NCBI RefSeq assembly: GCF_002993885.1
Contig: NZ_CM009578.1
Coordinates: 2,750,009 to 2,814,008 of the forward strand
Source: Sphingopyxis lindanitolerans
Lineage (GTDB): Bacteria; Pseudomonadota; Alphaproteobacteria; Sphingomonadales; Sphingomonadaceae
Length of the DNA stretch: 64,000 nt
Direction: 5' to 3'
Position numbers and translations under genes: made by a program. This document shows positions 3,846-63,314 of the stretch, one piece after another (within the stretch, counting starts at the first letter, position 1; each line of letters begins with the position of its first letter). The notes beneath the pieces were generated by a model that saw only the letters and a list, made by a program, of their open reading frames with translations, was not told the origin of the DNA and ran no database searches.

Positions 3846-4247
3846 TTATCGAAAGAGGCGGGCGACGTGGACTTCGGCGACCCGCTTGCCCAGCAGTTCA
3901 TAATGATCGGCCGAATAGCCGGCAGCAAAGAAGGCCTTCAGCTCGGCCTTCGGCACCGAATAGCTGTGGTGCCAGGTCAGCACCGCCATCCGGCGCAGCG
4001 CCTCGAGCCGCGGGTCGGCAAGGCGGCGTCCCACCGCGCCGCCGAAGATCCGGCCGAGCCATGTCGCGACGCGGCCGGGCTCGCGCAGGCTCGCAGGCCG
4101 GTCGTGACGGGCAAGCATCACGACCGACCATTCGAGCGCCGAAAAGCCGGCGGGACTATCGGCTTTCGGCGCTGCGGGGGAGAGGGTTCGGGGTGCGGCC
4201 GGCGCGATAGCGGCGGCGGCTCCGTCGGTCAGGGCAAGATAGGCCAT
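3846..4247 (-). CDS. small protein of unknown function
   Basis: A 133-residue protein I do not recognise. The ATG at 4247 follows a GGAGG ribosome site; an in-frame upstream codon at 4280 lacks one. The first ~40 residues are Ala/Pro-rich and probably disordered. The C-terminal ~90 residues look folded and basic, with a WHHSYSVP segment and an AGYSADHYELLGKRVAEVHVARL end; no catalytic motif or membrane segment is evident. It lies downstream of the TetR gene on the same strand, with a perfect 7-bp palindrome in between, so it may be that regulator's target. Confidence 0.6.
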   Translation of the reverse strand: MAYLALTDGAAAAIAPAAPRTLSPAAPKADSPAGFSALEWSVVMLARHDRPASLREPGRVATWLGRIFGGAVGRRLADPRLEALRRMAVLTWHHSYSVPKAELKAFFAAGYSADHYELLGKRVAEVHVARLFR

Positions 4248-4474
4248 GGTCGGTCCTCCGTGGATTTTTGCCGGGCGCAAGGGGGCACAGGCCCCGGACG
4301 CTTGCGCCCGGCGAGGGGAGATCGTGTGCGGAAGACCGCTCCGTCGCTCAGCGAACGGCGGCGCGAAATTCAGCGCAACATGTCTGGGCTGGCCTGGGGG
4401 GCAGGCCGGTATCGATGGGCGAGAAACGCGGGCTTTTCGACTTCGCTTCCGGCGGCTCCGTCGCCCCGACCATC

Positions 4475-4490
4475 TATACCATGTGGTATA
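4475..4490. promoter_or_regulatory. palindromic operator candidate
   Basis: The sequence TATACCA-TG-TGGTATA is an inverted repeat with perfect 7-base arms. It lies in the AT-rich gap between the TetR gene (stop at 4545) and the small gene starting at 4247. A related half site (GGTATATAA) sits just upstream of the TetR start, near 5163. TetR dimers commonly bind palindromes of this size. The link to the adjacent regulator is inferred from position. Confidence 0.45.
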
Positions 4491-4544
4491 TAAATCTGCC
4501 GTTCATCTTGTCAAGGCGTTTCATACCGATCGTTACATTAAATT

Positions 4545-59688: not shown

Positions 59689-59721
59689 CAATCCAGGGCG
59701 GTCGTAAACCGCCCTGGATTG
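59689..59721 (-). terminator. strong hairpin after glycine-rich gene
   Basis: A perfect 14-bp stem, CAATCCAGGGCGGT (59689-59702) with its complement (59708-59721), loop CGTAA, 23 bases after the stop of the glycine-rich gene on the minus strand. There is no clear T run, so it may also stabilise the mRNA end. It is the main structure in the 314-base gap 59430-59743; I see no gene in the rest. Confidence 0.65.
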
Positions 59722-59743: not shown

Positions 59744-60661
59744 TTAGTCGTTGCGGTTATCGTTGCGTTCGATGCGGCCGCTTCGCTGCGTCGTCTGCGA
59801 TGTGGGTCCGGTTGCCGGCCGGCTTGCCTCATCCTGCTGCGCGGCCGCATCCTTGAGCTGCCCCTTGGTCATCCCGGTGACGAGCACGTCGCCCGACCCC
59901 GCGAAGCTGGCGGCGGGAAGCGTCGCGACGCGGTTTCCGACTTCGACCGTGACGGCTTGGACGACGCCGCGGCCGGTCTGGCGCAGATTCTGCACATGGC
60001 CGATCACCTTGCCGCGTGCGTCGGTAACCGCCATGCCGGGTGCGACCGCGAACATGCCGCTGCCGCTTGCCGCGCCGCTGCCGGCGGCGGCGAGCTGGCC
60101 GAGGGCGCCCTGGAAGCTGCCGGTGGCCGAACCGGCGCCATGCGTGGTGCCCGAGAGACCCGAGGCCGCGCTGCCCGCCTGATCGCCGAGATTTCCGACC
60201 GCACCGCGCGCAGTGCCGGTGGCGGTCGAGGCAGAGCCCTGCACGGCGCCGACCGCACCGCGCGCGGTCTGATCGACGACGTCGGTGCCGACCGCCTGCG
60301 CGTCGAGGCTGCCGTTGCCCGAAGCGCCGCCCGAGCCGTTGGCGTTTCCGCCGACGGCGTCGCCGAGCAGGTCGCCATTGCCATTCGCCGAGCCCTTGCC
60401 GTTCGCGCTGCCCTTGCCGTGCACCCGGCCCGAGCGGCGATCGACATTCGCCTCGCCGTGGCCCGAGCCGGTCAGGTCGCCCGTGCTGCCGAGGGTGCCG
60501 CCGATCGGACCGGTCGGGTTGCCGAGCGTGCCGCCCAACGTGCCGCCGAGACCGCCGGCAAGACCGCCGCCGCCACCGAGCAACTGCGCCGCGGCGGGCG
60601 CCGAAAAGGCCATGGCCGATGCGGCGAGCGCGAGGGCCGAAATGAAAATGCGATGTGTCAT
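59744..60661 (-). CDS. secreted glycine-rich protein, ECF regulon member candidate
   Basis: A 305-residue exported protein. The signal peptide ends at APAAAQLL. Then ~200 residues are Gly/Ala/Ser/Asn-rich with near-repeats (GGTLGGTLGNPTGPIGGTLG; SANGKGSANGNGD; GTARGAVGNLGDQAG), likely flexible. The last ~100 residues fold as a small barrel-like domain (VAPGMAVTDARGKVIGHVQNL ... VTVEVGNRVATLPAASF), similar to PRC-barrel. Function unknown; perhaps an envelope or surface protein. The start at 60661 has AGGAGCAGGA upstream, and a GGAAG-N17-CGTT promoter lies 49-74 bases upstream. Confidence 0.8.
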   Translation of the reverse strand: MTHRIFISALALAASAMAFSAPAAAQLLGGGGGLAGGLGGTLGGTLGNPTGPIGGTLGSTGDLTGSGHGEANVDRRSGRVHGKGSANGKGSANGNGDLLGDAVGGNANGSGGASGNGSLDAQAVGTDVVDQTARGAVGAVQGSASTATGTARGAVGNLGDQAGSAASGLSGTTHGAGSATGSFQGALGQLAAAGSGAASGSGMFAVAPGMAVTDARGKVIGHVQNLRQTGRGVVQAVTVEVGNRVATLPAASFAGSGDVLVTGMTKGQLKDAAAQQDEASRPATGPTSQTTQRSGRIERNDNRND

Positions 60662-60709: not shown

Positions 60710-60735
60710 AACGACGGGGCGTTCGATTTTCTTCC
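60710..60735 (-). promoter_or_regulatory. ECF-type promoter of the glycine-rich gene
   Basis: On the minus strand GGAAG (60731-60735), 17 bases, then CGTT (60710-60713). The longer form GGAAGAAA-N14-CGTT is shared with both strands of the site at 62080-62111. ECF promoters have GGAAC-like -35 and CGT -10 elements. The expected start of transcription is near 60703. Confidence 0.6.
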
Positions 60736-60753: not shown

Positions 60754-62022
60754 TCAGCGCCCGCCGCACGCGCCGCAGATCAGGCCGTGACCATAGACTT
60801 TGTCGCGACCCTTTTTGCCGAGATCGAGCGCCTCCATGACGAGGGCGGCGACGGCGGGGCCGATGGCTTCGATCGAGGGCGCGGGATAGTGAAGCGCAAG
60901 CCGGCCCGCGACGAGCGGCGCCGCGAAAGAGGTGCCGCGCAGCCGGTCGGCGGAATTCACGCCGGTTGCCGCCAGCACCGCGTCCCCAGGCGCCGCGAAG
61001 TCGATGTGGAGCGCACGCCCCGCCTCGGGAAGCGCGCGGCCTTTCGCATCGACCCCCGTCACCGCGAATACACCGGGATAGGATGCCGGATAGGCGGGCG
61101 GCGCGGCGGGGCCGTCGTTGCCGACCGCCGCGACGATCAGCATCCCGCGCTGTCGCGCTCGCGTCACCGCAGCCGCAAGCAGCCTGTTGTCGGGGCCGAC
61201 GAGGCTGATCGTCGTCACCGCGACGCCGCTCTCCACCAGCCAGCCCAGCGCGCGGGCGATCGCACTCGCATTGCCGCCCGCAGGGTCGGTGCCATAGACA
61301 TCGGCGGCGAGCAGGCGTCGTCCGGGCGCGGCACCCCGCACCGGTCCGTTCCCGACGAGCAGCGAGGCGATGGCCGTCCCGTGGCGGCTCGCCGACGGCG
61401 CCCCCGTCGCAAAGCCGCGCTGCTCCACGCGCCCCGCGATCGATGGATGCGCGGCGACGCCGCCGTCGATCAGGCCGAGCTTTGCCGCGCCGCCGCCCGT
61501 GGCCGTCGCGAGTGCGGCCTGCGGCAATGCCCCGCCCGGGCCGCTGGCGAAATAGAGATTGTCGACATCGATCCCGGCGTCGGGGAGAAGCTTTGCCAGT
61601 TGCTTGCGCGCGCGCGTCAGGCTGCGCCCCTTCGGGACGTGAAAGCGCGCGATATCGAGGTCGAGCCCCGCGATATATTCGCGGTCGAGCAGGGCAAAGC
61701 CTGCCTCGCCCGCGCGCGCGATCATCGCCGCGTCGATCCCGCTCGCGACGAGGATGCCGCGCACCGCGGGCTCACCGCGTTCGTCGAGTTCGATGCTTTC
61801 GCGATGGCCGCGCAACAGCGCGGTGATCCGGTCGAGCCGAATCTGCGGCAGTCTGTCCACCGCCGAAATCAAGGGTTCGGTATTCAGGTCGGGCCATTGC
61901 GGCAAACTGCGCGCGGCGTCGGGGATCTGGACTTGCGGCAAGGCAAGCTGCGCGTCCGCGCGTGGCCCGATCCCGGCGAGCAGGAGGCAAAGCGTCGTCA
62001 GCAGGGCAGTCCAGAGTCTCAT
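60754..62022 (-). CDS. S8 family subtilisin-like serine protease, exported
   Basis: A 422-residue exported protease. The signal peptide ends at RADAQLAL. The triad is Asp in LGLIDGGV, His in ASRHGTAIASLL and Ser in RGTSFAAPLVAG; the oxyanion Asn is in AAVGNDGP. Residues ~30-190 before it are a probable prodomain (DLDIARFHVPKGRSLTRARK). The last Cys pair is CGAC. It is divergent from the ECF sigma gene, with a symmetric promoter-like palindrome between. In similar loci such proteases are ECF targets. Confidence 0.92.
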   Translation of the reverse strand: MRLWTALLTTLCLLLAGIGPRADAQLALPQVQIPDAARSLPQWPDLNTEPLISAVDRLPQIRLDRITALLRGHRESIELDERGEPAVRGILVASGIDAAMIARAGEAGFALLDREYIAGLDLDIARFHVPKGRSLTRARKQLAKLLPDAGIDVDNLYFASGPGGALPQAALATATGGGAAKLGLIDGGVAAHPSIAGRVEQRGFATGAPSASRHGTAIASLLVGNGPVRGAAPGRRLLAADVYGTDPAGGNASAIARALGWLVESGVAVTTISLVGPDNRLLAAAVTRARQRGMLIVAAVGNDGPAAPPAYPASYPGVFAVTGVDAKGRALPEAGRALHIDFAAPGDAVLAATGVNSADRLRGTSFAAPLVAGRLALHYPAPSIEAIGPAVAALVMEALDLGKKGRDKVYGHGLICGACGGR

Positions 62023-62079
62023 CGCACCTCTCGCAAGGATCGCCCGCGGGCGCCGTCCCGGAAAAATTTAGCATGTTGC

Positions 62080-62111
62080 GGAAGAAACGATAGAAGGCTG
62101 TCGTTTCTTCC
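62080..62111. promoter_or_regulatory. palindromic bidirectional ECF promoter
   Basis: GGAAGAAACGA (62080-62090) and TCGTTTCTTCC (62101-62111) are perfect 11-base inverted copies around 10 bases. Because of the symmetry, each strand reads GGAAG-N17-CGTT. The plus strand points to the sigma gene (CGTT at 62102-62105, ATG at 62134) and the minus strand to the protease gene (CGTT complement at 62086-62089, ATG at 62022). Both give normal leader lengths. Confidence 0.65.
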
Positions 62112-62133
62112 TCGGACAATCGAAAAGGCGACA

Positions 62134-62622
62134 ATGCGCTTTGAAGAGGAACTGGTCGAGCTGCTGCCCCGTCTGCGCCGTTTCGCGCGCGGGCTGGCGC
62201 AGGGCGCCAGCGACGCCGACGACCTGTGCCAGGCGGCGATCGAACGCGCCCTGAAATCGCGCGAACAATGGCAAGATGGAACGAGACTGGACAGTTGGAT
62301 GTACCGCATCACCCGCAATCTCTGGATCGACGAGCGCCGCGCGGCCGGTCGGCGCGGCATTCACACGCCGATCGACGAGGCCGCGACGCAGGTCGCGGGC
62401 GACGGCGCCGCCGAGGTCGAGGCGGGAGCGCTGCGCGGCGATGTCGATGGCGCGATGGCCCGGCTTCCCGACGAGCAGCGCGAGGTGGTGATGCTCGTTC
62501 TGGTCGAAGGCTATGCCTATCGCGAGGCGGCCGAGATTCTGGAGGTGCCGATCGGCACCGTCACCTCACGTCTGGCGCGCGGCCGGGAGACGCTGATGCA
62601 TTTGCTGGGAGAGGCGGCATGA
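62134..62622 (+). CDS. ECF-type RNA polymerase sigma factor
   Basis: A 162-residue sigma-70 family factor with regions 2 and 4 only. Region 2 contains GASDADDLCQAAIERAL and SWMYRITRNLWIDERRAAGR; region 4 contains LPDEQREVVMLVLVEGYAYREAAEILEVPIGTVTSRLARGRETL. The ATG at 62134 follows AAAAGGCGAC; the frame is open for 1.4 kb upstream but that lies antisense to the protease gene. It is followed by an anti-sigma gene with a four-base overlap. Confidence 0.93.
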   Translation: MRFEEELVELLPRLRRFARGLAQGASDADDLCQAAIERALKSREQWQDGTRLDSWMYRITRNLWIDERRAAGRRGIHTPIDEAATQVAGDGAAEVEAGALRGDVDGAMARLPDEQREVVMLVLVEGYAYREAAEILEVPIGTVTSRLARGRETLMHLLGEAA

Positions 62623-63314
62623 GCTTCGACCTCGCCACCATCGCCGCCTTTGTCGATGGCGAACTCGACGATCTGACCGCGCGCCGGATCGAGCGCGAGG
62701 CCGAGAGCGATCCGGCGCTGGCGGCAGAGATCGCGCGGCACCGCGCGCTGAAGGCAGAACTGACGGCGCATTTCGCGCCGGCCCTGCAAGAAGCGGTTCC
62801 CGACAGGCTCCGGATGTTGCTCGTCGACAGCAAGGTCGATACCAGCCTTGCTGGCCGCCGCGACGCGAAATCCGCTCGCTTTGCACCGATCCATTGGGGC
62901 GCGATCGCGGCGTCGCTGGCGCTGGGACTGGCGATCGGCCTGAAGCCGTGGCTGCCCGCGGCCGACGTGACCAGTGCGAACGGCACGCTGGTCGCCTCGG
63001 GTCCGCTTGCCCGGGCCCTCGACACGCAGCTCGCCTCGAACCAGTCCGCCGATGCCGAGGTGCGGATCGGCCTGAGTTTTCGAGATAAGCGGGGCCGCTA
63101 TTGCCGCAGCTTCGAGGGGGCCGCGCTTTCCGGCATCGGATGCCGCGACGGGGATCGCTGGGCGCTCGAACGCGCGCTGCGCGGGAATGTCAAAAGAGAC
63201 TATCGACAGGCCTCCTCGGGCGCGCTGGCGACCGACGTGGCGGCGATGCTGGCGGGCGACCCCTTCGACGCCGCCGCGGAACGCGCCGCGCGCGACCGGG
63301 GCTGGTCCAACTGA
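62619..63314 (+). CDS. anti-sigma factor, membrane-anchored
   Basis: A 231-residue protein. The N-terminal ~90 residues are cytoplasmic (DLATIAAFVDGELDDLTARRIER... as in anti-sigma domains), followed by one TM segment (HWGAIAASLALGLAIGL, residues ~93-110) and a ~120-residue periplasmic domain with two cysteines (RYCRSFEG, GIGCRDG). The N-terminal zinc motif H-x3-C-x2-C of ZAS proteins is absent. Stop/start overlap with the sigma gene supports its role. The two periplasmic Cys could be a redox or fold sensor. Confidence 0.85.
   Translation: MSFDLATIAAFVDGELDDLTARRIEREAESDPALAAEIARHRALKAELTAHFAPALQEAVPDRLRMLLVDSKVDTSLAGRRDAKSARFAPIHWGAIAASLALGLAIGLKPWLPAADVTSANGTLVASGPLARALDTQLASNQSADAEVRIGLSFRDKRGRYCRSFEGAALSGIGCRDGDRWALERALRGNVKRDYRQASSGALATDVAAMLAGDPFDAAAERAARDRGWSN

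What the first reader, a model, noticed from the sequence alone, without database searches (positions are those of the whole stretch)
62080..62111. Perfectly symmetric, bidirectional ECF promoter between protease and sigma genes
Seen: GGAAGAAACGA and TCGTTTCTTCC are exact inverted copies with a 10-base centre. Hence both strands read GGAAG-N17-CGTT, the layout of an ECF promoter, and both are well placed for the divergent genes. Known: ECF factors autoregulate through GGAAC-like/CGT promoters. Inference: one sigma can drive the two genes from one overlapping site, where polymerases on opposite strands would compete. A palindrome that is two promoters at once is unusual.
Basis: partly seen in the sequence, partly recalled or inferred. 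Interest (0 to 1): 0.75.

Follow-up and report, generated by a model that had tools for sequence, protein, structure and literature searches.

The report
Mirror-image promoter driving two genes
A short mirror-image DNA site between a regulator gene and a protease gene very probably works as a start signal in both directions for that same regulator, and the design has been kept across many related bacteria, so it looks like a real and testable two-way promoter rather than a curiosity of one genome.

Summary
Observation confirmed: 62080-62111 is GGAAGAAACGA-N10-TCGTTTCTTCC; both strands read GGAAG-N17-CGTT. Two overlapping promoters of the neighbouring ECF sigma is well supported by comparison; nothing was measured. 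(1) The same motif, one-way, lies before a Gly-rich gene (60710-60735, -) and, 434 kb away, a 112-aa secreted-type protein gene; exact GGAAGAAA-N14-CGTT occurs four times in the genome, only at these sites. (2) In-register reverse elements occur at 47 of 50 sigma/protease sites, 0 of 46 Gly-rich sites, 0 of 19 small-gene candidates. (3) The palindrome is in 97 of 397 family genomes, 39 of 96 genera, reversed control zero; 70 of 70 fetched sites (of 100), and 3 of 3 in two other families, separate this sigma from a divergent S8 protease. (4) Both flanks carry a pyrimidine-purine step at one distance from CGTT. (5) The fourth -35 base differs between lineages at sigma, Gly-rich and small-gene promoters together, broadly with one sigma residue. 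Predicted starts: 62114 (+), 62077 (-). Polymerase competition is inferred. New variant of a known kind.

The parts
62080..62111 (.). Symmetric bidirectional ECF-type promoter: 11-bp inverted arms, 10-bp centre
   Evidence: full 20/20 match to the degenerate pattern in 46 of 50 loci; 97 of 397 family genomes
62080..62105 (+). Promoter of the sigma/anti-sigma operon: -35 GGAAG(AAA) 62080-62087, -10 CGTT 62102-62105, predicted start G62114
   Evidence: pyrimidine-purine step at +8/+9 after CGTT in 44 of 50 loci; start is a prediction
62086..62111 (-). Promoter of the S8 protease gene: -35 GGAAG(AAA) 62111-62104, -10 CGTT 62089-62086, predicted start A62077
   Evidence: pyrimidine-purine step at +8/+9 after CGTT in 49 of 50 loci; start is a prediction
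62062..62073 (+). A/T tract plus GCA just upstream of the sigma -35, possible UP element
   Evidence: sequence; similar tract in most rows; function inferred
62134..62622 (+). ECF sigma factor, 162 aa, likely reader of both promoters
   Evidence: Sigma70_r2 and Sigma70_r4_2 above Pfam cut-offs
62619..63314 (+). Probable anti-sigma factor, 231 aa, overlapping the sigma stop codon
   Evidence: NCBIfam antisigma NF052375 E 2.3e-5 but below its cut-off; no Pfam hit at E 0.001; position
60754..62022 (-). Subtilase-family (S8) serine peptidase, 422 aa, hydrophobic N-terminus, divergent gene
   Evidence: Peptidase_S8 E 4.3e-25
60710..60735 (-). One-way promoter of the same type before the Gly-rich gene: GGAAGAAA-N14-CGTT, predicted start 60701
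   Evidence: in-register motif in 46 of 50 loci within the distance window
59744..60661 (-). Gly-rich protein with signal-like N-terminus and a weak PRC-barrel-like stretch, 305 aa
   Evidence: ORF (longer start listed there; start at 60661 chosen); PRC E 0.021, below cut-off

Best explanation
62080-62111 is two overlapping, face-to-face promoters of one ECF sigma factor. RNA polymerase carrying the sigma encoded at 62134 reads GGA(A/T)(G/T)AAA-N14-CGTT in either orientation: rightward it starts near 62114 and makes sigma and anti-sigma (positive autoregulation); leftward it starts near 62077 and makes the S8 protease. Each promoter's -35 lies where the other opens and starts, so only one polymerase should fit at a time and each loading goes to one side or the other. 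The A-tract behind the -35 doubles as part of the opposite -10 (AACG read backwards), and the pyrimidine-rich stretch that follows CGTT in the one-way Gly-rich promoters as well leaves room for the opposite -35. Shown by comparison: motif, symmetry, genes on both sides, one-way copies elsewhere, joint change of the fourth -35 base.
For: Four exact GGAAGAAA-N14-CGTT in the genome, all before genes of this set, one of them 434 kb away. Reverse elements in register: 47 of 50 at the sigma/protease site, 0 of 46 at the Gly-rich site, 0 of 19 at the small-gene candidates (two of these look like chance hits and one, L042, lies before another gene). Palindrome in 97 of 397 family genomes, 39 of 96 genera, control zero; 70 of 70 fetched family sites (of 100) and 3 of 3 sites from two other families lie between sigma and divergent S8 protease. 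Of 46 sigma copies examined (of 61; overlapping partly with the loci above), 38 have the divergent S8 protease: 33 match the pattern exactly and all 38 score at least 18/20; the 8 without a strong protease hit score 12-15, and 7 of those 8 show a one-way GGAAT-N16/17-CGT(T/A), no control run. Pyrimidine-purine at +8/+9 after CGTT: sigma 44 of 50, protease 49 of 50, Gly-rich 43 of 47, small gene 12 of 17, background 0.27; in 70 further loci 55 and 54. Fourth -35 base: Gly-rich promoters GGAA in 37 of 37 Sphingopyxis-type loci and GGAT in 9 of 9 others; small-gene candidates 8 of 8 and 9 of 9.
Against: No transcript or protein data. The protease-side -35 varies more than the sigma-side one (GGACG in L008, L036 and L154, GGATG in L019). 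The sigma residue that tracks the fourth base is not absolute: with GGAT it is V in 73 of 78, A in 2, I, C and G once each; with GGAA it is A in 40 and L in 1 of 41, and lineages are not independent. In the 70 further loci the start signal is not unique: steps also occur at +7 (51 and 48) and, on the protease side, +13 (39). A second protein binding the palindrome is not excluded.
Confidence: 0.9

Rival explanations
1. The palindrome is the operator of a dimeric repressor or activator; the promoter-like elements are incidental.
For: Spaced inverted arms are typical of dimer sites (general knowledge); symmetry is strongly conserved.
Against: The same sequence is used one-way, without symmetry, before other genes (0 of 46 and 0 of 19 with both reverse elements); the four neighbouring proteins searched show no repressor domain; the arms vary within what the one-way sites accept (GGATG/GGATT).
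Confidence: 0.04
2. Only the sigma direction is used; leftward symmetry is a by-product and the protease has another promoter.
For: The longest A/T run upstream of the -35 is longer on the sigma side (mean 9.1 against 4.6); the leftward -35 is slightly more variable.
Against: One-way promoters of the same motif show no such symmetry; a pyrimidine-purine start signal is present in 49 of 50 on the protease side; in the 8 copies examined without a strong protease hit the symmetry is absent.
Confidence: 0.04
3. Two overlapping promoters, but read by another sigma such as EcfG of the general stress response.
For: EcfG promoters are GGAAC-N16-CGTT in Sphingopyxis granuli (PMC7083833, passages), close to GGAAG-N17-CGTT. 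The own genome encodes six further sigma relatives at E 1e-3.
Against: Fifth base, A-tract and spacing differ; the AAC triplet is nearly invariant in that paper's promoters (3 of 79 with a mismatch, passage); the fourth base switches with lineage and broadly with this sigma; the EcfG-like symmetric pattern was found in 0 of 385 Alphaproteobacteria.
Confidence: 0.03

Closest known systems
Sigma-70 bidirectional promoters of bacteria (Middlemiss 2023, PMC10268837, part 1 of 3 of the text seen; Warman 2021 recalled, not held)
   Same: One DNA element lets polymerase load in either orientation because of sequence symmetry
   Different: There the near-symmetric -10 is shared, starts usually lie 18 bp apart and the divergent RNA is often non-coding; here whole -35/-10 pairs interdigitate, predicted starts are 37 bp apart, the likely reader is an ECF sigma, and both products are conserved proteins
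EcfG (general stress response) promoters, nepR-ecfG and divergent phyR (PMC7083833 and PMC8103513, passages)
   Same: ECF sigma, similar -35/-10, autoregulation, both divergent units under the same sigma
   Different: GGAAC-N16-CGTT, NepR/PhyR control; no symmetric single site found (0 of 385 genomes for the one offset tried)
Overlapping divergent promoters in general (recalled)
   Same: Polymerases on opposite strands compete
   Different: As recalled, usually two unrelated promoters, not an inverted copy read by one sigma encoded by one of the genes

Membership tests
ECF (group IV) sigma factor | Regions sigma2 and sigma4 only | tested here: met
   Sigma70_r2 9-74 and Sigma70_r4_2 103-154 of 162 aa
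ECF (group IV) sigma factor | Anti-sigma encoded next to it | tested here: inconclusive
   Overlapping downstream gene, NCBIfam antisigma 24.5 bits against a cut-off of 100; relatives of it co-located in the loci
ECF (group IV) sigma factor | GGAA-type promoter motif before its own gene | tested here: met
   Motif conserved before the sigma gene; autoregulation itself not measured
EcfG general stress response | GGAAC-N16-CGTT motif | tested here: not met
   GGA(A/T)(G/T)AAA-N14-CGTT
EcfG general stress response | NepR encoded with the sigma | tested here: not met
   Downstream protein gives NepR only at E 0.13 over 14 residues; PhyR was not searched for
Sigma-70 bidirectional promoter | Shared -10, starts 18 bp apart | tested here: not met
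   Two separate -10 boxes in the sequence; starts 37 bp apart are predicted only
Bidirectional promoter, broad sense | Transcripts start in both directions from one site | not testable with these tools
   Needs start mapping; start-site signature on both sides
Palindromic regulator operator | Other sites of the same protein are palindromic too | tested here: not met
   0 of 46 and 0 of 19 other sites carry both reverse elements

The most novel reading that the evidence does not exclude
The symmetric promoter is a conserved splitter: one polymerase at a time chooses direction on a shared site, so the output ratio of sigma operon to protease is fixed by the DNA and each protease transcript is bought at the cost of a sigma transcript, which damps the sigma's self-amplification. 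If the protease also acts on the anti-sigma or its signal, the site closes a feedback loop. The design may be older than the family, since it occurs in three alphaproteobacterial families of the class sample.
Probability: 0.35. Interest if true: 0.75.

Novelty: new variant of a known kind. Interest (0 to 1): 0.6.

Why it matters
In the paper seen in part (PMC10268837), bacterial promoter bidirectionality is traced to near symmetry of the -10 element, with divergent RNAs often non-coding. Here an ECF sigma appears to use a fully inverted -35/-10 pair to drive two conserved coding units, kept in tens of genera while both arms drift together. It offers a compact natural system for measuring polymerase competition on one site, a defined ECF specificity change (GGAT against GGAA) to test, and a warning that a conserved palindrome next to a regulator need not be a repressor operator.

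Tried and rejected
Natural loss of the protease: L038 (second copy in one Sphingopyxis) lacks the protease and has a changed leftward -10 (CCGA for ACGA), but its sigma gene has an internal stop, so it is a decaying copy and not used as evidence. L005 has about 264 extra bases between palindrome and sigma start, palindrome intact.

Exact link between one sigma region-4 residue and the fourth -35 base: looked perfect at first, then exceptions appeared; kept as an association only.

GGAAG-N17-CGTT alone as a regulon finder: not above the reversed control. EcfG-like symmetric promoters with the same one-base offset: 0 of 385; other offsets not tried. Overall A/T content upstream of the -35 hardly separates the directions (0.59 against 0.53; Gly-rich 0.51, small gene 0.50), so the UP-element idea is weak.

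ECF group number: classification paper not held, not assigned. Literature: ten searches were answered (two searches returned no paper); in their listings I saw no symmetric ECF promoter. The library lacks most subscription papers, so this is weak evidence of absence. Structure prediction was not used.

Full report
What is there. The window end carries, on the minus strand, a Gly-rich protein (59744-60661) and a subtilase-family peptidase (60754-62022), and on the plus strand an ECF sigma (62134-62622) and a probable anti-sigma (62619-63314). Between the divergent genes lies GGAAGAAACGA-TAGAAGGCTG-TCGTTTCTTCC (62080-62111). Both strands read GGAAG-N17-CGTT.

Is it more than chance? Judged alone, not clearly: perfect 11-bp inverted repeats with centres up to 20 bases occur at 6 distinct places in the window (9 entries), and GGAAG-N17-CGTT occurs 26 times in the genome against 34 for the reversed control. 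With the A-tract added, GGAAGAAA-N14-CGTT occurs exactly four times in 4.37 Mb (one mismatch allowed: 15 against 9 for the control): twice in the palindrome, once before the Gly-rich gene (60735-60710, minus), once 434 kb away at C1:3246733, with its CGTT 37 nt before the start of a 112-aa secreted-type protein. In relatives a homologue of that small gene lies downstream of the anti-sigma gene with the same motif: 12 of the 13 candidate sites whose gene I read (the thirteenth, L042, is before another gene). The protein has 106 database relatives beside itself at E 0.001 and no Pfam family.

Comparison. The sigma was sought in genome contigs; 80 loci were returned, and I used the 49 sphingomonad ones, L001-L049; the other 31 are distant and, apart from a glance at L050, were not used. 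The divergent S8 protease is beside the sigma in 48 of the 49, not in L038. With the window that makes 50 loci; 46 match the 20 defined positions of the symmetric pattern fully, and L008, L036, L038 and L045 score 18-19, all at the same spacing. Information content in the 40 Sphingopyxis-type rows is 1.95 and 1.89 bits in the arms, 1.15 in the centre, 1.06 and 0.66 in the 30-base flanks. In the family search the pattern is in 97 of 397 genomes and 39 of 96 genera, 100 sites, none for the reversed control. I fetched 70 of the sites; all 70 have the sigma on one side and the S8 peptidase divergent on the other (30, 40). In the class-wide sample it is in 5 of 385 genomes; three are from two other families and have the same two genes.

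Promoter or operator? At single genes of the set the motif is one-way. Counting the reverse -10 and reverse -35 in register: 47 of 50 sigma/protease sites have both, 0 of 46 Gly-rich sites (2 have the reverse -10 alone), 0 of 19 small-gene candidates, of which L014 at 1766 and L047 at 2556 look like chance hits. Not among the 46 are L005 (its site lies outside the distance window but exists), L038 (no Gly-rich gene) and L039 and L047 (no Gly-rich match in the DNA held). A symmetric regulator would not be expected to use one-way sites, whereas a sigma factor would. Conversely, taking sigma copies first: of 61 copies in 57 of 199 genomes I examined 46: the 30 loci given, the window's own included, and 16 that I chose, suspected exceptions among them. 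The other 15 were not examined there, and many of the 46 overlap with loci already counted. 38 have the divergent S8 protease, 33 with the exact pattern and 5 with 18-19 of 20 (L154, L161, L167, L185, L193). The 8 copies without a strong protease hit (L183, L184, L186-L191) score 12-15, and 7 of them carry a one-way GGAAT-N16/17-CGT(T/A) before the sigma gene (no control). Three of these 8 (L186, L188, L191) give weak divergent hits to the protease queries (E 5e-5 to 9e-7).

Start sites. After CGTT a stretch that is mostly pyrimidine ends in a pyrimidine-purine step at positions 8/9 in 44 of 50 sigma sides, 49 of 50 protease sides, 43 of 47 Gly-rich and 12 of 17 small-gene promoters; the background is 0.27. 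In the 70 loci it is 55 and 54 of 70, but steps are also common at 7 (51 and 48) and, on the protease side, at 13 (39). This signal lies outside the arms, so it is separate evidence that both directions are used; shared ancestry inflates the counts. It predicts G62114 for sigma and A62077 for the protease.

Who reads it? The fourth -35 base is A at the Gly-rich promoters of 37 of 37 Sphingopyxis-type loci and T in 9 of 9 others; at small-gene candidates (the two chance hits left out) A in 8 of 8 and T in 9 of 9. The sigma and protease boxes follow, with protease-side exceptions in L008, L019 and L036. The sigma residue in SRL(A/V)RGR goes with it: sigma-side GGAA with A in 40 and L in 1 of 41; GGAT with V in 73 of 78, A in 2, I, C and G once each (four rows that the script could not parse, L113, L126, L131 and L132, were read by eye; L038 left out as broken). 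By eye and from memory the position corresponds to F175 of E. coli RpoE, near the -35 contact; the structure paper was not held.

Mechanism. Two holoenzymes cannot plausibly occupy the same 32 bp, so the site should act as a one-at-a-time promoter. A longer A/T run lies upstream of the sigma-side -35 (mean 9.1 against 4.6), so the sigma direction may be favoured. Functions of the protease, the Gly-rich and the small protein in this system are unknown; that the protease touches the anti-sigma is speculation.

Known or new? Sigma-70 bidirectional promoters with starts usually 18 bp apart are described in PMC10268837 (first of three parts of the text seen). EcfG promoters in Sphingopyxis granuli are GGAAC-N16-CGTT (PMC7083833, passages), and a review says nepR-ecfG and divergent phyR units are both driven by such promoters (PMC8103513, passages). 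[quoted passage not shown] PMC6472365 was seen in four passages, none of which I could tie to this locus. None of the listings of ten answered searches showed an inverted, same-sigma ECF promoter. I therefore call it a new variant of a known kind.

Noticed in passing
own genome C1:3246733-3246758 and the gene after it (L111 1001-1399): A 112-aa secreted-type protein of unknown family has the fourth copy of this promoter; in other sphingomonads it lies downstream of the anti-sigma gene.
   Followed up: partly
window 62062-62073 and equivalents in L081-L152: An A/T tract followed by TTAGCA or TTAAGCA lies just left of the palindrome in many loci; it could be an UP element or part of the protease leader.
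   Followed up: partly
G111 (L107, L161), G071 (L192, L193), G221, G336, G342: Some genomes carry two sigma/protease modules, each with its own symmetric or near-symmetric site; in G111 one is GGAA-type and the other GGAT-type, suggesting separated specificities.
   Followed up: no
L038 around 3950-4500: A second, broken sigma copy without the protease in Sphingopyxis sp. JAI108.
   Followed up: partly
L186-L188, L190, L191: More distant sigma relatives have a divergent open frame for a charged or acidic, secreted-type protein of 263-280 aa and a one-way GGAAT-N16-CGT(T/A) promoter; frames not searched in databases.
   Followed up: no
window 59689-59721: A perfect inverted repeat with 14-base arms and a 5-base centre downstream of the Gly-rich gene, terminator-like.
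   Followed up: no
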